Part shown: in pieces, positions 11,250-18,988 of the stretch
How the letters are laid out: each line of letters begins with the position of its first letter
Numbering within the stretch: the first letter of the stretch is position 1
Assembly (NCBI RefSeq): GCF_000384335.2
Contig: NZ_KQ031382.1
Coordinates: 3,111,545-3,175,544 of the forward strand
From: Hyphomicrobium sp. 99
Lineage (GTDB): Bacteria > Pseudomonadota > Alphaproteobacteria > Rhizobiales > Hyphomicrobiaceae
Length of the DNA: 64,000 nucleotides
Direction of reading: 5' to 3'
Notes under the pieces: model-generated
Databases searched by the model: none
What the model was told of the DNA's origin: nothing
Seen by the model: the letters and a program-made list of their open reading frames with translations, nothing else
Program-made: the position numbers and the translations under genes

Positions 11250-11621
11250 TCAAGCCTCTGCGGGAGCAAATCCTGGGGGCGTCGCCGGTTCGAGATTGAC
11301 GCTCTCGCCGCAACCGCACGCACTCTTCTGGTTCGGGTTGTTGAACACGAACTGCGAGGAAAGCTTGTCGGTCTTATAATCCATCTCGGTGCCGAGCAGA
11401 TACATCATCGCGGCCGGATCGATGAGGACGACCGCGCCTTTGTCTTCGATGATTTCGTCGAACTTCCCGATCTCTTCAGCCCACGTCATGGTGTATTCCA
11501 TGCCCGCGCAGCCACCCTTCTTAATGCCGATTTTGAGGGCTTTGACGCCGGGTTTCTGCGCGATGAGCGCAGCAACGCGCGCCGCGGCGGCATCCGTCAG
11601 GGTCATCACTTTTGGCATCAT
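11250..11621 (-). CDS. sufA: A-type Fe-S cluster carrier (SufA/IscA family)
   Basis: Small scaffold/carrier that receives Fe-S clusters from SufBCD and passes them to apo-proteins. It has the HesB/IscA core with the first cysteine in KKGGCAGMEY and the paired C-terminal cysteines in SACGCGES, the three expected ligands. The frame is open to 11675 (141 residues). I chose the ATG at 11621 because family homology begins around MTLTDAAAARV; ATG at 11618 and 11606 are also possible. It lies last but one in the suf operon, about 90 bases after sufT, with the TfoX-like gene following. Confidence 0.92.
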   Translation of the reverse strand: MMPKVMTLTDAAAARVAALIAQKPGVKALKIGIKKGGCAGMEYTMTWAEEIGKFDEIIEDKGAVVLIDPAAMMYLLGTEMDYKTDKLSSQFVFNNPNQKSACGCGESVNLEPATPPGFAPAEA

Positions 11622-11711
11622 TCTAAGCGAGGGCACGCGAGCCTCCGTATCTTCGAGTCGTGGCAGCAGCCACACTATATGGGAATTCAGCCGCCAAAAG
11701 CGAGGGTGTCC

Positions 11712-12191
11712 TCAAAACATGCCGACGGCGAGGCGTGCCTCGTCCGACATGCGGCTTTGATCCCAAGGCGGATCGAACACGATGGCAACCTTCGTCTGGG
11801 CGACGCCCGGAACCGCGTTGACGGCATTCTCGACCCAGATCGGCATTTCGCCGGCGACCGGGCAGCCGGGAGCCGTCAAGGTCATGGTGATCGCGACATT
11901 GCGGTCGTCATCGACATCGACCTTGTAGATCAATCCAAGCTCGTAGATGTCGGCCGGGATTTCCGGATCGTAAACGGTCTTGAGCGCAGCAACGATATCG
12001 TTCGTCAGCCGCTCGATCTCTTCCGGTGGCAATGCAGTGGCGGACGAAGATCCGTTTCTGTCCTCCGACGTCGCAATCTCAGATGCGGGATCGGGCGCAA
12101 GGCCACCATCAGGAGGCGTCGTTGGCGGCGCATCGAGCGCTTCGACCGCCTGCTTGACAGCTGCCCGGTCATCAATCTGCTTCCCGTCCAT
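11712..12191 (-). CDS. sufT: SUF system maturation factor SufT (DUF59/MIP18 family)
   Basis: Member of the MIP18/DUF59 family, which helps load Fe-S clusters onto target proteins. The C-terminal 100 residues show VYDPEIPADIYELGLIYKV, the TMTLTAPGCPVAGEMP cysteine loop and the VFDPPWDQSRMSDEAR ending typical of SufT. The first 55 residues are a Pro/Asp/Ser-rich linker with little structure. Its position between sufS and sufA in the operon (11-base gap to sufS) supports the SufT assignment rather than PaaD or another DUF59 branch. Confidence 0.93.
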   Translation of the reverse strand: MDGKQIDDRAAVKQAVEALDAPPTTPPDGGLAPDPASEIATSEDRNGSSSATALPPEEIERLTNDIVAALKTVYDPEIPADIYELGLIYKVDVDDDRNVAITMTLTAPGCPVAGEMPIWVENAVNAVPGVAQTKVAIVFDPPWDQSRMSDEARLAVGMF

Positions 12192-12202: not shown

Positions 12203-13486
12203 TCAGGTGAAAAGGTCATGAGCTTTGGTGAGCGCGGCAACCAGCGCATCAGCCTCGGCTTTTGTGTTGTACAATGCGAAGGAGGCGCGGCAGGTTGCCG
12301 AAACCCCGAGCCGCTCCATCAGCGGCTGCGCGCAGTGATGGCCGGCCCGGATCGCGACGCCCGAACGATCAATGATCGTCGAAACGTCATGCGGATGCAG
12401 GCCATCGATCGTGAATGAGAAAATCGCGCCTTTGCCGGGAGCGGTTCCGTAAGGCTTCAGCCAAGGCAACTCACCAAGACGCCCCGCCGCATACGCGCCA
12501 AGCTCCGCTTCGTAACGCGAGATCTTCTCGCGGCCGATCTGCATCATGTAATTGAGCGCCGCGCTTAAACCAATCGCTTCAACGATGGCCGGAGTGCCGG
12601 CCTCAAACCTGTGCGGCGGCTGGTTGTAGGTCACGTTGTCGAGCGTAACGCTCTCGATCATATCGCCCCCGCCCTCGTAAGGCGGCATGGCGGCGAGATG
12701 TTGCCGCTTGGCATAAAGCACGCCGATGCCCGTCGGCCCGTACGTCTTATGCCCGGTAAACACGTAGAAATCGGCATCGAGATCGCGAACGTCCACGCCC
12801 ATATGCACGGCAGCCTGGCTGCCATCGATGAGCACCGGCACGCCCTTCGCGTGCGCGATCCGAATGATCTCTTTCACCGGATTGATCGTGCCCAGCACGT
12901 TCGACATGTGCGTAACGGCGACGATCTTCGTGCGCTTCGTGATCAGGCTTTCGAGCTTTTCGATGATCAACTCGCCGCTATCGGTCATCGGCGCCCACTT
13001 CAGAACGGCGCCCTTGCGTTCGCGCAGGAAATGCCACGGCACGATGTTCGCGTGGTGCTCCATGATCGTGATGAGGATCTCGTCCCCTTCACCGACCCGC
13101 GGCTCTCCAAACGAACGCGCGACGAGGTTGATGGCGCTCGTCGCATTGCGCGTGAAGATGATCTCGTCCTGATGCTCGGCATTGAGAAAGCGGCGCACGG
13201 TCTCACGCGCCGCCTCATAATGCTCCGTCGCGGTGTTCGACAGGTAATGCAGCCCGCGATGCACGTTCGCGTATTCGAAGCGATAGGCGTGATCCATCGC
13301 CTCGATGACGGAGAGCGGCTTCTGCGCCGACGCCCCGTTGTCGAGATAGACGAGCGGACGATCGTTCACCTCGCGAAAGAGGATCGGAAAGTCCGCACGA
13401 ATGCGCTCGACATCGTAGGGCGCACCCGTCAGGCCGGCCTGCGAGGCGGTGCTTCTCGCTACATCGATCGACGTTTCGCGTCCCAT
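12203..13486 (-). CDS. sufS: Cysteine desulfurase SufS
   Basis: PLP-dependent class V aminotransferase-fold enzyme that takes sulfur from cysteine for SUF cluster assembly. Seen motifs are VYLDNGASAQKP near the start, the ATEHYEAAR segment, the PLP lysine in FTGHKTYGPTG and the catalytic cysteine in IRAGHHCAQPLM, which marks the SufS group (type II). ATG at 13486 follows the sufD stop by 4 bases; the frame is open further upstream inside sufD but without homology. The product is 427 residues, near the family norm. This genome carries a second, different desulfurase in the operon's head gene. Confidence 0.95.
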   Translation of the reverse strand: MGRETSIDVARSTASQAGLTGAPYDVERIRADFPILFREVNDRPLVYLDNGASAQKPLSVIEAMDHAYRFEYANVHRGLHYLSNTATEHYEAARETVRRFLNAEHQDEIIFTRNATSAINLVARSFGEPRVGEGDEILITIMEHHANIVPWHFLRERKGAVLKWAPMTDSGELIIEKLESLITKRTKIVAVTHMSNVLGTINPVKEIIRIAHAKGVPVLIDGSQAAVHMGVDVRDLDADFYVFTGHKTYGPTGIGVLYAKRQHLAAMPPYEGGGDMIESVTLDNVTYNQPPHRFEAGTPAIVEAIGLSAALNYMMQIGREKISRYEAELGAYAAGRLGELPWLKPYGTAPGKGAIFSFTIDGLHPHDVSTIIDRSGVAIRAGHHCAQPLMERLGVSATCRASFALYNTKAEADALVAALTKAHDLFT

Positions 13487-13490
13487 GTGC

Positions 13491-14828
13491 CTATCCGCGT
13501 GGCGAGCGGCCGAGCCACTGCATCGCATAAGATGCCAGCGCCTCTCTCAGCCCCTCGTGCTCAACCTTGTCGAGCGCTTCACCAATGAACGATTCGATCA
13601 TCAACGCGCGAGCTTCCTTTTCAGGAATGCCCCGCGAGCGGCAGTAGAACAGAAGATCGGCATCGAGTTCCGCGCTCGTCGTACCGTGCCCGCAAACGAC
13701 ATCGTCCGCGTAGATTTCGAGTTCGGGCTTTGAATCGAACTCGGAATCTTCCGATAGCATCAGCGCTTGCGACATCTGCTTGCCGTCGGTCTTCTGCGCA
13801 TCGGGCCGAACGATGATCTTGCCCTGGAACACGCCGCGTCCGTGACCGTCGAGAACACCCTTGAACAGCTCCCGGCTTTCGCAACGCGGGACCGCATGAT
13901 CGACGACGAGCGTCGTGTCGACGTGTTCCGAATGACGAGCGAGATAAGCGCCCGAAAGGTCGAGCTTAGCTCCTTCGCCCGCGAAAAGAACGTTGCTCCC
14001 GTGACGGGCAAAGCCGAGACCCGACGAGAACTGGAAGCCGCGGTAGCTCGCATCGGCCGACAGCGTCACTTCGCCATTCGAAAGATGCAGCGACTTGCCT
14101 TCATCGACCGCCACCTTCACGTGATTGAGCGTCGCGCCTTTTCCAACCGAGACCTGGGTCAGAGTGTTGAGGTGCGCGTCTCGCACTGCGCCCGGCAGCA
14201 CGACGTCCGCTTCGATGATCGTCGCGTTCGAACTCTCACCGGCAGTGATCAGATTGCGGACGGTGACCGCATTGGCCTCCGACCCGGCACGCACAAAAAT
14301 CATGAGAAGCGGCTTGGCGACCGACGCGCCCTTGGCGACTTCAACGATCGCGCCATCCGTCATGAAAGCCGTGTTGAGCGCTTCGACAGCGTCTCCGCCC
14401 TCGGGCGTCGAAGCCAGGCTAAGAACAGTCTCTTCGGACGCGGACTGAAGCGCCTTGCCGATTGTCGAGACCGTCAACCCGGTCGCGTCGGCAACGTCGC
14501 TCAAGTCTGCGCGATGGTGGCCGTTCACGAAGACGATGCGATGCGCATCGACATGAGCCAACGGCCCGAGCGCAACGATAAGCTCGGCGATGGTCAGCGG
14601 CGTCTTATCCTCGACGGCGGGCGGAAGCACCTCTTTGAGGTTCGCGCGGAGATCGGTGTATTTCCATTCTTCGATGCGCCGGTGCGGGAGCCCGAGCCCG
14701 CTGAACGCGCCGATAGCCTGCGCACGGAGAGCCTTCACCGCGGCGCTGCCCGGAAGCTTTGCGGCGGCCGCCTCGAAACTCTCCGAGATGGCCTGCTCCG
14801 CCTTGGTCTTCATGACTGCTACGTTCAT
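13491..14828 (-). CDS. sufD: Fe-S cluster assembly protein SufD
   Basis: Partner of SufB in the SufBC2D scaffold complex. It has the SufB/D beta-helix core followed by the conserved C-terminal stretch HGTTSAELDADLLFYCRSRG and the EARALMIESFIGEAL helix. The N-terminal region includes the RRIEEWKYTDLR motif typical of SufD. Start choice is ambiguous: ATG at 14828, or GTG at 14834 that overlaps the sufC stop (GTGA). Either gives translational coupling to sufC. The length of about 446 residues is normal. Confidence 0.95.
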   Translation of the reverse strand: MNVAVMKTKAEQAISESFEAAAAKLPGSAAVKALRAQAIGAFSGLGLPHRRIEEWKYTDLRANLKEVLPPAVEDKTPLTIAELIVALGPLAHVDAHRIVFVNGHHRADLSDVADATGLTVSTIGKALQSASEETVLSLASTPEGGDAVEALNTAFMTDGAIVEVAKGASVAKPLLMIFVRAGSEANAVTVRNLITAGESSNATIIEADVVLPGAVRDAHLNTLTQVSVGKGATLNHVKVAVDEGKSLHLSNGEVTLSADASYRGFQFSSGLGFARHGSNVLFAGEGAKLDLSGAYLARHSEHVDTTLVVDHAVPRCESRELFKGVLDGHGRGVFQGKIIVRPDAQKTDGKQMSQALMLSEDSEFDSKPELEIYADDVVCGHGTTSAELDADLLFYCRSRGIPEKEARALMIESFIGEALDKVEHEGLREALASYAMQWLGRSPRG

Positions 14829-14830
14829 GT

Positions 14831-15586
14831 TCACGCTGCCTTGTTCGTAAATTCAGCGTAGCCGGATTTCTCCAGTTCGAGCGCCAGCTCCTTGCCGCCC
14901 GTCTTCTGAATGCGTCCGTCTGCAAGCACGTGGACCTTATCCGGCACGATGTAATTCAAGAGCCGCTGATAGTGCGTGATCACGAGGAACGCGCGATCCG
15001 GCGAACGAAGCGCGTTGACGCCATCCGAGACGATCCGCAACGCGTCGATGTCGAGGCCGGAATCGGTTTCGTCGAGTACGCACAGCGTTGGCTCGAGAAG
15101 GCCCATCTGCAGGATTTCCGAGCGCTTCTTTTCGCCACCCGAGAACCCGACGTTGACCGGACGCTTCAACATGTCGATGTCGATGTTGAGCTTCGCGCCC
15201 TTCTCCTTCGCCAGTTTCAGGAAGGCCGGCGTTGTGAGTTCCGCTTCGCCGCGTTTCTTGCGAACGGCGTTGAGCGCCGTGCGGAGGAACGTCAGCCCGG
15301 CGACGCCCGGAATTTCCATCGGATACTGGAATGCGAGGAACACGCCCTTTGCGGCGCGCTCATCAGGCAACATCTCGAGGATGGACTCGCCATTCCACAG
15401 AATGTCGCCGTCGGTAACTTCATAGCCGTCCCGCCCCGCGAGCACATAGGCGAGCGTGGACTTGCCGGACCCGTTCGGGCCCATGATGGCGTGCACTTCG
15501 CCTTTCGGCACCGTGAGCGAAAGCCCCTTGAGGATCTCCCGATCCTCGTCCTCGAGCTTCACGTGCAGGTTCTTGATCTCAAGCAT
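14831..15586 (-). CDS. sufC: Fe-S cluster assembly ATPase SufC
   Basis: ABC-type ATPase that drives conformational change in SufBC2D. The 251-residue protein carries Walker [10 protein letters not shown], the ABC signature FSGGEKKR, Walker [16 protein letters not shown] (the D-E-T-D-S-G-L-D form is typical of SufC) and an H-loop histidine in [10 protein letters not shown]. It lies between sufB (33-base gap) and sufD (overlapping or adjacent start). Confidence 0.97.
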
Positions 15587-15619: not shown

Positions 15620-17089
15620 TTAGCCGACCGAGCCTTCAAGCGAGATGCCGATCAGCTTCTGGGATTCGGCCATGAACTCCATCGGCAGCTGCTGCAGCAC
15701 GTCGCGAACGAAACCGTTGACAACGAGCGCCACCGCCTCCTCCGACGAAAGACCGCGCTGGCGGCAGTAGAACAGCATGTCGTCCGAGATCTTCGACGTC
15801 GTCGCCTCGTGCTCGAAGTGCGCGCTCGAATTCTTGGCTTCGATGTAGGGCACGGTGTGCGCACCGCACTTGTCGCCGATCAGCAGCGAGTCGCAGTTCG
15901 TGAAGTTGCGAACGCCCGTCGCCTTCCGGTGCGCCGACACGAGACCGCGATACGTATTCTGCGAATAACCCGCCGCGATGCCCTTCGAGATGATGCGGCT
16001 CGACGAGTTCTTGCCGAGATGGATCATCTTCGTTCCGCTGTCGACCTGCTGATAGCCGTTCGAAACCGCGATCGAATAGAACTCGCCGCGCGAATAGTCG
16101 CCGCGCAGGATGCAGCTCGGATACTTCCACGTAATGGCGGAACCCGTCTCGACCTGCGTCCACGAAATCTTCGAATGATGGCCGCGGCAGTCGCCGCGCT
16201 TCGTCACGAAGTTATAGATGCCGCCCTTGCCCTGAGCGTCGCCCGGATACCAGTTCTGAACCGTCGAGTATTTGATCTCGGCATCATCAAGCGCCACGAG
16301 TTCGACGACAGCCGCGTGCAGCTGGTTTTCGTCGCGCATCGGCGCGGTGCAACCTTCGAGATACGAAACGTACGCCCCGCGATCGGCGATGATCAGCGTG
16401 CGTTCGAACTGTCCCGTCTGCTTCGCATTGATGCGGAAGTACGTCGAAAGCTCCATCGGGCAGCGCACGCCTTCCGGCACGTAGACGAACGAGCCGTCGG
16501 AGAACACGGCCGAGTTCAGCGCCGCATAATAGTTGTCCGACTGCGGAACGACCGACCCGAGATACTTCTTCACGAGTTCGGGGTGCTCGCGCACGGCTTC
16601 CGAGATCGAGCAGAAAATCACGCCGGCCTTCTTTAGTTCGTCCTTGAACGTCGTGACGACCGACACGCTGTCGAACACGGCATCGACCGCGACGCGCGAT
16701 CCCGTCACGCCCGCAAGAATTTCCTGCTCCTTGAGCGGAATGCCGAGCTTTTTATAGGTCTCGAGCAGCTCCGGATCGACTTCGGCAAGGCTCTTCGGAC
16801 CCTCGGTCGATTTCGGCGCCGAGTAGTAATAGAGATCCTGAAAATCGATCTTCGGATAGTGGACCTTAGCCCAAGTCGGCTCCGTCATCGCCTTCCAGCG
16901 AGTGAACGCTTCGAGCCTCCAAGTCAGAAGCCACTCCGGTTCGCCCTTCTTGGCCGAGATGTAGCGCACGGTCGATTCATCGAGGCCTTTCGGCGCCTGG
17001 ATGCTATCGATCAGCGTCTCGAAACCGTACTTGTACTGGTCGACATCGATCTTCCGAACGTGATCGATTGTCTCCTGAACAGCAGCCAT
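15620..17089 (-). CDS. sufB: Fe-S cluster assembly protein SufB
   Basis: Main scaffold subunit on which the SUF cluster is built. The 489 residues match family length. Seen motifs are [12 protein letters not shown] near the N-terminus, [40 protein letters not shown] and the C-terminal [20 protein letters not shown], with the conserved cysteine in the last block. It is the second gene of the operon, 54 bases downstream of the regulator-desulfurase fusion. Confidence 0.97.
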
Positions 17090-17143: not shown

Positions 17144-18715
17144 TTAAGCAGCGAGCGCGGGCGCTCCTGCGATCGTCGTCCACGCAGCGAGAAATGCCGC
17201 GATATCTTCCTTAGTCGTCGCCGGTCCGAGACTGATGCGGATCGTGCCCGCGGCAATGTCGTGACCAAGTCCCATCGCTTCGAGAACGTGGCTCGCGCCG
17301 ACTTTGCCGGATGAGCAAGCCGATCCGGCGCTTACAGCGATTCCGGCGAGATCCAATCTGATGACCAGCGTTTCAGCGAGCTTGCCGGGAAGCGCCAAAG
17401 CCGTCGTATTCCCGAGACGCGTCGCGCCTTCGCCGATGATCACCGTCTCGGGACTGATGCGCTTGACGCCTGCCTCGACTTCATCCCGCAATGCCTGGAT
17501 GGCCGCCGCCGATTTGAGATCGCGAAGCGCGGCTTCGGCTGCAGCACCAAATCCCGCGATGGCAGCGACGTTTTCCGTCCCAGCGCGCCGCCGTCTCTCC
17601 TGGCCGCCGCCTCGAATTGCGGGAACGAGATCTACATGGTCACGAATGACCAGTGCACCAACACCTTTAGGGCCACCTAATTTGTGCGCGGAGAGCGCCA
17701 GCGTATCGACGCCGAGCGACGCGAAATCGATCGCCATCCGGCCCGCCGCCTGCACCGCGTCCGTATGCACCGACAGGCCTCTCGAGCGCGCAAGCTCGGC
17801 AATTTCCGCAACCGGCTGCACGATGCCGGTCTCGTTGTTCGCCAACTGCAGCGCGAGAAGCGACGGACCCGCGAATTCTCGCGTCAAAACACTCTCGGCG
17901 AATTCATCGAGGTCGACGATGCCGTTCACATCGAGCGGCAGCATAACAACGTCACTGCGAGCCGCGCGAACCGGAGCGAGAATGGAATCGTGCTCCGTGC
18001 CGCTCGTCAAAATCGTCGCCCACGGCTGCGCAACAATCCAGTTGTTGGCTTCCGTCGCTCCGCTGGTGAAAACGATCTCTGAAGGCTTGGCGCCGACAAG
18101 ACGCCCGACGCTTTCCCGCGCACTCTCGATGACGGAACGGGCACGCCGGCCTTCGGCATGAACAGATGACGGATTGCCCGCGACATCGAGCGCCGCGATC
18201 ATCGCAGCCTTCGCCTCAGCCCGGAGCGGCGCCGTCGCGTTGTAATCGAGATAGGTTCGCTTGCCCGTGGTTCGCGCGGCAGCGGCTGTGAACAACGGAC
18301 CCGATGAATACCGCCCGCCGGTGATGACGTCTGCGAGATTAACCGACGACAGGAAGTGTCCCATCGACTCACTCAGCGCGGTCCAAAGCCAGTGTGTGAC
18401 ACATGGCGTCGCGGCGGAGCACCGCGGATCATTGTGCGAACAGCGCGTAAAGCGGGTGTCTTCCTCGACCGCTTCCATCACCGCGGCGATCGAGATCTCG
18501 GCGGCAGGCTTCGCGAGCCGGTATCCACCCGAGCGGCCGCGGGCGCTCTCGACGAGGCCAGCGCGGCGAAGGGGCACGAAAAGCTGTTCCAGATAGGCGA
18601 GCGGCAGGCTCTGCCGCTCAGCGACGACCGACAGCGCTATGGCGCCTTCATCGGCATGCCCGGCGAGATCCGCCATGGCCATGACCGCGTACCGGCCTTT
18701 GGTCGTCAATTCCAC
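17144..18715 (-). CDS. Fusion of IscR-type Rrf2 regulator and cysteine desulfurase
   Basis: One uninterrupted frame encodes two proteins that are normally separate. Residues 1-135 are an Rrf2/IscR regulator: ELTTKGRYAVMAMADLA, then a winged helix ending RSGGYRLAKPA, then three cysteines at 92, 99 and 105 plus His108, closely matching the [2Fe-2S] ligands of IscR (C92, C98, C104, H107). Residues 150-523 are an IscS/NifS-type class V desulfurase: TYLDYNATAPLR, PLP lysine 345 in SAHKLGGPKG and catalytic Cys467 in SAGSACSSG. I chose GTG at 18715 because GGAG stands 9 bases upstream and the cysteine numbering then fits IscR; ATG at 18763 is the longest alternative and would read across a palindrome. 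The product could sense cluster status while feeding sulfur to the operon it heads; that coupling is inference. Confidence 0.9.
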   Translation of the reverse strand: MELTTKGRYAVMAMADLAGHADEGAIALSVVAERQSLPLAYLEQLFVPLRRAGLVESARGRSGGYRLAKPAAEISIAAVMEAVEEDTRFTRCSHNDPRCSAATPCVTHWLWTALSESMGHFLSSVNLADVITGGRYSSGPLFTAAAARTTGKRTYLDYNATAPLRAEAKAAMIAALDVAGNPSSVHAEGRRARSVIESARESVGRLVGAKPSEIVFTSGATEANNWIVAQPWATILTSGTEHDSILAPVRAARSDVVMLPLDVNGIVDLDEFAESVLTREFAGPSLLALQLANNETGIVQPVAEIAELARSRGLSVHTDAVQAAGRMAIDFASLGVDTLALSAHKLGGPKGVGALVIRDHVDLVPAIRGGGQERRRRAGTENVAAIAGFGAAAEAALRDLKSAAAIQALRDEVEAGVKRISPETVIIGEGATRLGNTTALALPGKLAETLVIRLDLAGIAVSAGSACSSGKVGASHVLEAMGLGHDIAAGTIRISLGPATTKEDIAAFLAAWTTIAGAPALAA

Positions 18716-18735
18716 GTCGCTGATCTCCGGACTAT

Positions 18736-18755
18736 CGTTGCCCCAAGTGGCAACG
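18736..18755. promoter_or_regulatory. Palindrome next to the suf operon start, candidate Rrf2 operator
   Basis: A perfect inverted repeat CGTTGCC-n6-GGCAACG lies 20 bases upstream of the chosen GTG start of the IscR-desulfurase fusion. Its place in the 5' leader suits autoregulation by the encoded Rrf2 domain. It does not spell the E. coli IscR consensus, so the assignment is inference. Confidence 0.5.
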
Positions 18756-18842
18756 GAATCCAAACCTTGCGCCCGGCACCCCGGACTGTGCTAAGAGAGC
18801 CGCCCTGATCCAATGCCTGTTGTAAACGAGCCAGGACCCATA

Positions 18843-18859
18843 TTTCGAACGGTTCTAAA
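18843..18859. promoter_or_regulatory. Irr-box/ICE-like palindrome upstream of the suf operon
   Basis: The 17-base palindrome TTTCGAA-CGG-TTCTAAA differs at one arm position from a perfect TTTNGAA-n3-TTCNAAA. It resembles the iron control element bound by Irr in Rhizobiales, where suf operons are known Irr targets. It lies 128 bases before the operon's first start codon, and also 130 bases before the divergent hydrolase. Confidence 0.6.
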
Positions 18860-18988
18860 GTTATGGAAATCCTGAGCGCCGGAGTCAAGGATTGAGATTC
18901 AACCCACAAGGATTTGATCGCTCGGAGGCCATCCATTGGCTCCGTAGCTGCCCTGAAGCCAATTGACCGAAAGATCGAGTAATCTCTG

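What the first reader, a model, noticed from the sequence alone, without database searches (positions are those of the whole stretch)
17144..18755. IscR-type regulator fused in frame to a cysteine desulfurase at the head of the suf operon
Seen: one continuous frame joins an Rrf2 domain with IscR-like ligands (C92, C99, C105, H108) to a complete IscS/NifS-type desulfurase (K345, C467). Known: in most alphaproteobacteria the regulator and desulfurase are separate adjacent genes. Inference: a single protein could sense its own product (Fe-S status) and supply sulfur, tying operon control to enzyme occupancy. Loss of a stop codon or a shared ancestral fusion are both possible origins.
Basis: partly seen in the sequence, partly recalled or inferred. 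Interest (0 to 1): 0.85.

Follow-up and report, generated by a model that had tools for sequence, protein, structure and literature searches.

The report
Fused iron-sulfur regulator and desulfurase
In Hyphomicrobium bacteria the protein that is expected to switch the iron-sulfur cluster genes on or off and the enzyme expected to supply their sulfur are one single protein, a natural fusion that lets researchers test whether a sensor tied to its own supplier works differently from the usual separate pair.

Summary
One uninterrupted frame (window 17144-18715, minus strand, GTG start, 523 aa) joins a complete IscR-type Rrf2 domain to a complete NifS/IscS-type desulfurase at the head of a suf operon. 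It is not a sequencing error: all 22 genomes held for the genus have it without a stop. The Fe-S ligands (C92, C99, C105, H108), DNA-contact residues Y41/E43/Q44/R59 and K345/C467 are invariant in 60 aligned sequences, window included. Both domains are under equal purifying selection (median dN/dS about 0.15), the linker is not (0.69). No internal start is conserved. Among the other 81 family genomes no intact fusion appeared in the rows listed; 33 loci from them that hold both genes were inspected and none is fused, 29 having a 4-base NTGA overlap in another frame. The simplest history is one frame change at the base of the genus, not simple stop loss. Independent-looking fusions occur in metagenomic proteins. 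My searches of an open-access library found no description of it. Most likely it is one bifunctional repressor-desulfurase, fixed 1:1. Crosstalk between the halves is plausible but not shown.

The parts
17144..18715 (-). fusion gene: IscR-type Rrf2 domain + linker + NifS/IscS-type cysteine desulfurase, 523 aa, GTG start, stop at 17144-17146
   Evidence: 22 of 22 genus genomes
18326..18715 (-). Rrf2 (IscR-type) domain, about residues 1-130; Fe-S ligands C92, C99, C105, H108; DNA-contact residues Y41, E43, Q44, R59
18260..18325 (-). linker, about residues 131-152; variable length and sequence, median dN/dS 0.69, residues 139-150 below pLDDT 50
17147..18259 (-). cysteine desulfurase domain, about residues 153-523; K345 and C467 invariant
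18859..18888 (-). promoter-like TTGACT-N17-CATAAC; TTGAC and CATA at this spacing in 22 of 22 genus members, a similar pattern in 24 of 28 loci of relatives with separate genes
18843..18859 (-). Irr-box-like palindrome TTTAGAACCGTTCGAAA just downstream of the -10
   Evidence: IrrA gene in the genome
18766..18797 (-). conserved 5' leader block CTCTTAGCACAGTCCGGGG...GCAAG
18725..18761 (-). predicted hairpin ending at the GGAG ribosome site; aligned from 20 of 22 genus genomes (not recognised in G005 and G013)
15620..17089 (-). sufB
14831..15586 (-). sufC
13491..14834 (-). sufD
12203..13528 (-). sufS, the second desulfurase of the operon
11712..12191 (-). SUF-associated DUF59 protein (TIGR02945), sufT-like
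11250..11675 (-). sufA-like A-type carrier
   Evidence: 135.1 bits, cut-off 136.2

Best explanation
The gene makes one bifunctional protein of 523 residues. Its N-terminal half works like IscR: an Rrf2 winged-helix protein with a (Cys)3(His)1 Fe-S site that regulates the suf operon it heads. Its C-terminal half works like NifS/IscS: a PLP enzyme that takes sulfur from cysteine. A flexible linker (17-32 residues between the flanking motifs in the genus, median 24) joins the two. The fusion replaced an ancestral pair of genes with overlapping stop and start. It fixes regulator and desulfurase at 1:1 and rules out making one without the other. Shown by sequence: one frame, both sets of key residues, selection on both halves, presence throughout the genus, retained promoter. 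Inferred: DNA binding, cluster binding, desulfurase activity, dimerisation (known of both families), single origin, and any benefit of tethering.
For: Both domains are near complete. No stop occurs in 22 of 22 genus genomes, and 120 of 120 listed rows of the first protein search, the window's own included, carry both domains. Fe-S ligands, four DNA-contact residues, PLP lysine and catalytic cysteine are invariant in 60 aligned sequences. Median dN/dS is 0.145 for Rrf2, 0.154 for the desulfurase and 0.693 for the linker. No internal start with a ribosome site is conserved. The model shows two folded domains around a low-confidence linker, and the desulfurase matches solved IscS/NifS folds. The three other Rrf2 proteins found in the genome score best against RirA or NsrR models, and the other two desulfurases found are SufS-type. 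Promoter and Irr-like box are also found in relatives with separate genes. Other fused clades exist in metagenomic proteins.
Against: There are no expression, proteomic or biochemical data. Scores for the IscR (150.5 vs 207.55) and NifS (339.9 vs 530.75) equivalog models are below their curated cut-offs. In 21 of 22 genomes there is at least one internal ATG/GTG/TTG within 40 codons of the enzyme motif, three genomes with an SD-like stretch before one, so some separate desulfurase cannot be excluded. No IscR operator was found or tested. In the model, residues 86-91 beside the ligand cysteines and 364-380 are also below pLDDT 50. The spacing of the first two ligand cysteines has one residue more than in E. 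coli IscR (E. coli spacing recalled).
Confidence: 0.75

Rival explanations
1. Neutral tethering (a form of the best explanation without crosstalk): the protein has both activities, but they do not affect each other. The fusion was a harmless accident that replaced the stop/start overlap, and its only effect is fixed 1:1 amounts.
For: Linker is near-neutral (dN/dS 0.69) and of variable length and sequence. The model gives no confident domain packing (pTM 0.69, linker below 50). The overlap seen in relatives would already couple synthesis of the two proteins (inference).
Against: Kept in 22 of 22 genomes, down to 62% identity to the window's protein; similar fusions occur in other clades, which hints at a benefit.
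Confidence: 0.45
2. The frame is fused, but the cell makes two working proteins, by internal initiation in the linker region or by proteolysis of the flexible linker.
For: The linker is of low model confidence, as disordered stretches are; 21 of 22 genomes have some internal start codon within 40 codons of the desulfurase motif.
Against: Internal starts are not conserved in place, one genome (G003) has none, and only 3 of 22 have an SD-like stretch. Proteolysis was not testable.
Confidence: 0.12
3. The Rrf2 half has lost gene control and serves only as a dimerisation or cluster-holding module of the desulfurase.
For: No operator was shown; the IscR model cut-off is not reached.
Against: DNA-contact residues Y41, E43, Q44, R59 and all four ligands are invariant; dN/dS matches that of the enzyme half; no other IscR-like regulator was found in the genome.
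Confidence: 0.07
4. Assembly or frameshift error.
For: Two look-alikes outside the genus (L076, L101) do look like this: a scrambled junction, and a frame with ambiguous bases that reads on into sufB.
Against: 22 of 22 genomes of the genus agree, and 120 of 120 listed homologue rows have both domains.
Confidence: 0.01

Closest known systems
IscR (Rrf2 family), e.g. PDB 4chu, 4hf0-4hf2; Caulobacter IscR (PMC11475020)
   Same: Full Rrf2 domain, (Cys)3(His)1 ligand set, winged-helix contact residues, position at the head of the isc-suf operon
   Different: Not a free protein of about 150 aa: its C-terminal tail runs into a desulfurase; below the NCBIfam IscR cut-off
NifS/IscS-type cysteine desulfurase, e.g. 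PDB 4ixo, 4isy, 3lvm
   Same: Fold and catalytic Lys and Cys; closest NCBIfam model is NifS
   Different: Carries an N-terminal transcription-factor domain; below the NifS equivalog cut-off
iscR-iscS gene pair of the isc-suf operon in other members of the family
   Same: Same genes and order; similar promoter and Irr-like box in most relatives examined
   Different: Two proteins from overlapping frames (NTGA in 29 of 33 scored loci) instead of one
Family 2A encapsulin cargo desulfurase (NF041166), also in this genome (L002)
   Same: A cysteine desulfurase with an N-terminal extension
   Different: Extension belongs to the encapsulin-cargo model and the enzyme is SufS-type; no Rrf2 domain reported

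Membership tests
Rrf2 family | Pfam PF02082 over its gathering score | tested here: met
   127.1 bits vs 30, positions 1-130 of 132
IscR | (Cys)3(His)1 Fe-S ligands | tested here: met
   C92, C99, C105, H108 invariant in 60 aligned sequences; ligand set as quoted for IscR
IscR | type 2 DNA-contact residues S40, Y41, E43, Q44, R59 (as listed in PMC11475020, passage) | tested here: met
   Y41, E43, Q44, R59 invariant; position 40 is Ala in the window's protein and Ala or Ser in its relatives, so four of five residues strictly
IscR | NCBIfam TIGR02010 equivalog cut-off | tested here: not met
   150.5 vs 207.55 bits; hence called IscR-type, not filed as IscR
IscR | binds an Fe-S cluster and represses its own operon | not testable with these tools
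   needs protein and promoter assays
NifS/IscS-type cysteine desulfurase | Pfam Aminotran_5 and class V fold | tested here: met
   212.9 bits vs 21.5; best PDB folds are IscS/NifS/Nfs1
NifS/IscS-type cysteine desulfurase | PLP lysine and catalytic cysteine (equivalence to E. coli K206 and C328 recalled) | tested here: met
   K345 and C467 invariant in 60 aligned sequences
NifS | NCBIfam TIGR03402 equivalog cut-off | tested here: not met
   339.9 vs 530.75 bits
NifS/IscS-type cysteine desulfurase | releases sulfur from L-cysteine | not testable with these tools
   needs enzyme assay

The most novel reading that the evidence does not exclude
The fusion is a working sensor-supplier circuit in one molecule. 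The desulfurase half loads or starves the Fe-S site of its own regulator half in cis, or desulfurase turnover changes the DNA affinity of the regulator half. Suf transcription would then read local sulfur flow instead of the bulk cluster pool. The same solution would have arisen several times in bacteria.
Probability: 0.25. Interest if true: 0.88.

Novelty: new variant of a known kind. Interest (0 to 1): 0.62.

Why it matters
IscR feedback is a standard case of a cell measuring its iron-sulfur cluster supply. E. [quoted passage not shown] A fused protein cannot be uncoupled that way. A whole genus lives with sensor and sulfur donor as one polypeptide at fixed 1:1, while relatives keep the two genes apart behind a similar promoter. 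That is a natural experiment in which the effect of tethering can be tested directly by splitting the gene. It also bears on annotation: the source names seen call this protein for one half only ('Rrf2 family transcriptional regulator', 'aminotransferase class V-fold PLP-dependent enzyme', 'cysteine desulfurase').

Tried and rejected
Fusions outside the genus in named genomes: L076 (Hyphomonadaceae) has a scrambled junction that keeps what looks like an intact desulfurase start; L101 (Brevundimonas MAG) holds ambiguous bases and runs on into sufB. I treat both as probable errors.

Long open frames as hidden fusions: the 'open_frame_aa' column of the genome search looked as if more genomes were fused (for example G943, G863, G900). 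I fetched 60 stretches and checked them with the 20 loci by open frame: 0 of 80 loci are fused, some of the 80 lacking one or both domains. The column appears to count frames read through stops.

Where the other metagenomic fusions come from: searching the order of G318 (114 genomes) and the order of G157 (18 genomes) did not find their owners in the rows shown.

Rfam: no family for the leader (one sub-threshold hit inside the coding region). Covariation of the leader hairpin is weak: 95.3% of cells pair (reached by 87 of 500 shuffles), 2 of 12 pairs change on both sides, covariation score reached by 40 of 500 shuffles. That alignment held 16 distinct sequences from 20 genomes; G005 and G013, where I did not recognise the hairpin, were left out.

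Literature: asked for an IscR or Rrf2 fusion with a desulfurase and for Hyphomicrobium with the suf operon. Searches returned nothing. The other listings (1, 6, 4 and 1 papers) showed no title or abstract start on a natural fusion; I saw passages of three of those papers (PMC9973013, PMC11559095, PMC8595263), and none of the passages shown speaks of a natural regulator-desulfurase fusion. The rest I saw only as listings. The library holds open-access papers only. From PMC11475020, PMC4618611 and PMC3413700 I saw passages only.

Limits: the tables were cut ('more matches are not listed'), so a fusion in a distant lineage that scores low would not have been shown. In one search some of the 81 other family genomes show only partial or weak matches (for example G061, G108, G110). 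Only the best 120 of 8000 scored homologues were listed, and 59 of them plus the window were aligned. The tree used 99 rows that I chose from the loci and proteins held; for part of the rows that I labelled 'family' the kinship was not checked, and the same holds for part of the 28 loci. P0133/P0138/P0147 were left out of the tree because their desulfurase is a distant IscS. dN/dS used 153 (Rrf2), 87 (linker) and 138 (desulfurase) of 231 pairs, those with dS below 1.5, and dS is near saturation. In one search the close relative L135 was dropped because my motif did not match it.

Full report
WHAT IS THERE. On the minus strand of the window one frame runs without a stop from 18763 (TTG) or 18715 (GTG) to the stop at 17144. 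The GTG at 18713-18715 is the likely start. Pfam places Rrf2 and Aminotran_5 side by side, each nearly complete. Downstream lie sufB and sufC, then sufD, sufS, a SUF-associated DUF59 protein and a sufA-like carrier (coordinates). The gene heads an ordinary alphaproteobacterial isc-suf operon in which the first two genes are one.

IS IT REAL. The window's genome is rated 100% complete, 1.23% contaminated, in 3 contigs. All 22 genomes held for its genus have the fusion with no stop. All 120 listed rows of the first protein search, the window's own included, carry both domains by profile search. Names in that table and include Hyphomicrobium facile, H. denitrificans 1NES1, H. methylovorum and H. 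sp. 802. An assembly error is excluded.

WHO HAS IT. Of 103 genomes of the family, the 22 of this genus are fused. For the other 81, the best rows listed match the desulfurase part alone, starting at about residue 130 or later of the query, with Rrf2 as a separate match where it is listed; some show only partial or weak matches, and the table was cut. I inspected 34 loci of those genomes by open frame (G117 twice): 33 hold both genes, none fused, and one (G113) lacked Rrf2 in the stretch fetched. In a class-wide sample of 387 genomes the only intact full span among the rows shown was the window's own; 26 other rows span both domains in one frame but with one or more stops inside. In a phylum-wide sample of 398 genomes, searched with P0147, 19 of the rows shown likewise span both domains with stops inside and none without. 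NCBI-named Hyphomicrobium strains outside this clade (H. sulfonivorans S1, LHD-15, D-2, CS1BSMeth3) have separate genes.

HOW IT AROSE. In a tree of 99 desulfurase domains the 22 fused sequences form one clade next to relatives with separate genes (SH-aLRT 80, a modest value). In 32 of the 33 scored family loci the desulfurase frame is shifted against the regulator frame. In 29 the start codon overlaps the stop as NTGA and in 3 as TAATG/TGATG; one is different. Removing a stop codon would not join genes in shifted frames; a net frame change was needed. The fused linker (17-32, median 24 residues from the end of the Rrf2 L-x-D-V motif to the Y-x-D-x-N-A motif) is a little shorter than the matching stretch in 27 relatives (median about 33; two values of 137 and 181 come from a mis-set motif and are included, and L135 was dropped). 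A small indel is therefore enough.

ARE BOTH HALVES ALIVE. In 60 aligned sequences (the window and 59 homologues, 63-91% identical to it) C92, C99, C105, H108, Y41, E43, Q44, R59, K345 and C467 are invariant. The contact residues are those listed for E. coli IscR in PMC11475020 (passage); the fifth, S40, is Ala in the window's protein and Ala or Ser in relatives. Pairwise dN/dS (Nei-Gojobori, pairs with dS below 1.5) has medians 0.145 for Rrf2, 0.154 for the desulfurase and 0.693 for the linker. An internal start that would give a free desulfurase is not conserved: G003 has no ATG/GTG/TTG in the 40 codons before the enzyme motif, and only 3 of 22 genomes have one with an SD-like stretch; the other 21 do have some candidate codon. 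AlphaFold2 gives two folded domains (mean pLDDT 84.3, pTM 0.69) with residues 139-150 below 50, and also 86-91, 364-380 and 521-523; the arrangement of the domains is not established. Foldseek's 50 best PDB matches are IscS, NifS, Nfs1 and selenocysteine-lyase folds; sequence search also finds IscR structures 4chu and 4hf0-4hf2 for the first half.

IS IT THE ONLY COPY. The window genome holds two other desulfurases among its matches: sufS in the same operon and a 767-residue protein over the cut-off for the encapsulin-cargo desulfurase. Its three other Rrf2 matches score best against RirA or NsrR models, all below cut-off. Within the genus only G007 shows a second NifS-type match of similar strength in the rows listed.

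CONTROL REGION. TTGAC and CATA at the same spacing stand in all 22 genus members (window TTGACT-N17-CATAAC), followed by TTTAGAAC-N-GTTCGAAA (a strict pattern in 20 of 22, close variants in the other two). In 28 loci of relatives with separate genes the promoter pattern is found in 24 and the palindrome pattern in 21. The palindrome resembles an Irr box (resemblance recalled; passages of PMC3413700, say that such boxes lie close to promoters and that Irr represses under iron depletion, but print no consensus in what I saw). The genome has an IrrA gene (210.7 bits, cut-off 150). The control region thus most likely predates the fusion. I did not find or test an IscR operator.

INDEPENDENT FUSIONS. 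A search with only the Rrf2 part of L076 and a length filter that excludes free IscR returned 86 proteins, many of them Hyphomicrobium. Besides these there are clean two-domain proteins with short junctions: P0130, P0131, P0136, P0152, P0160, P0162, P0163, P0165 (one clade, SH-aLRT 93), P0134 and P0137 (another, 100), and P0133, P0138, P0147, where the regulator is joined to a distant IscS. A second such search with P0147 returned 38 proteins and no further clear IscS-type fusion. Others in the list have junctions that look shifted and may be errors (for example P0121, P0132, P0158). On the tree the 13 non-Hyphomicrobium fusions included need 5 changes, at least 4 forced by well-supported branches, but three of the 13 (P0121, P0124, P0127) are single doubtful cases; the clean groups on the tree amount to two. 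Their owners are unknown.

HOW IT LIKELY WORKS. Holo-protein represses its own operon when clusters suffice; apo-protein lets it run, and the same molecules supply sulfur. The regulator feedback follows what is described for E. coli IscR (passage in PMC11559095). That the Hyphomicrobium protein does so is inferred. What the fusion adds, if the frame is made as one protein, is a fixed 1:1 ratio. What it might add is loading of the sensor by its own donor; this is not shown.

VERDICT. Real, genus-wide, most simply of single origin, both halves under selection, and not described in what I searched. The parts are known; the architecture is new to me and testable.

Noticed in passing
18725-18797 (-): Conserved 5' leader with a predicted hairpin (GGATTYCGYCGCC-ACTTGR-GGCGRCG..AGTCC) abutting the ribosome site; recognised in 20 of 22 genus members, its core pattern not found upstream of the regulator gene in 28 loci of relatives. 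95.3% of cells pair but covariation is weak; no Rfam match over threshold.
   Followed up: partly
18843-18888 (-): Promoter plus Irr-box-like palindrome shared with most of 28 loci of relatives; IrrA gene at G000:C3:181036.
   Followed up: partly
L002 259-2559 (+): Same genome encodes a 767-aa family 2A encapsulin cargo cysteine desulfurase over its cut-off.
   Followed up: no
L141-L165 and L168 (class sample); L170-L181 (phylum sample): In many other genomes iscR and the desulfurase lie in the same frame, often split by a single stop: 26 rows and 19. One frame in three is expected by chance and alignment favours such cases; stop read-through was not tested.
   Followed up: no
P0122, P0123, P0125, P0126: Metagenomic proteins with Rrf2 and a hexapeptide-repeat domain, two of them (P0122, P0126) also matching the desulfurase: possible further fusions, some with shifted junctions.
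   Followed up: no
P0149, P0150: Rrf2 domain with metallo-beta-lactamase-fold domains, about 350 aa, 21 and 2 member sequences.
   Followed up: no
P0144, P0167: Rrf2 domain in one frame with SufB/D domains; fusion or assembly error not examined.
   Followed up: no
G007:C1:3506264-3507379: Only genus member in the rows listed with a second NifS-type desulfurase of similar strength.
   Followed up: no
L069, L071, L109, L114: NCBI-named Hyphomicrobium strains without the fusion; the fusion separates this genus clade from other strains filed under the name.
   Followed up: partly
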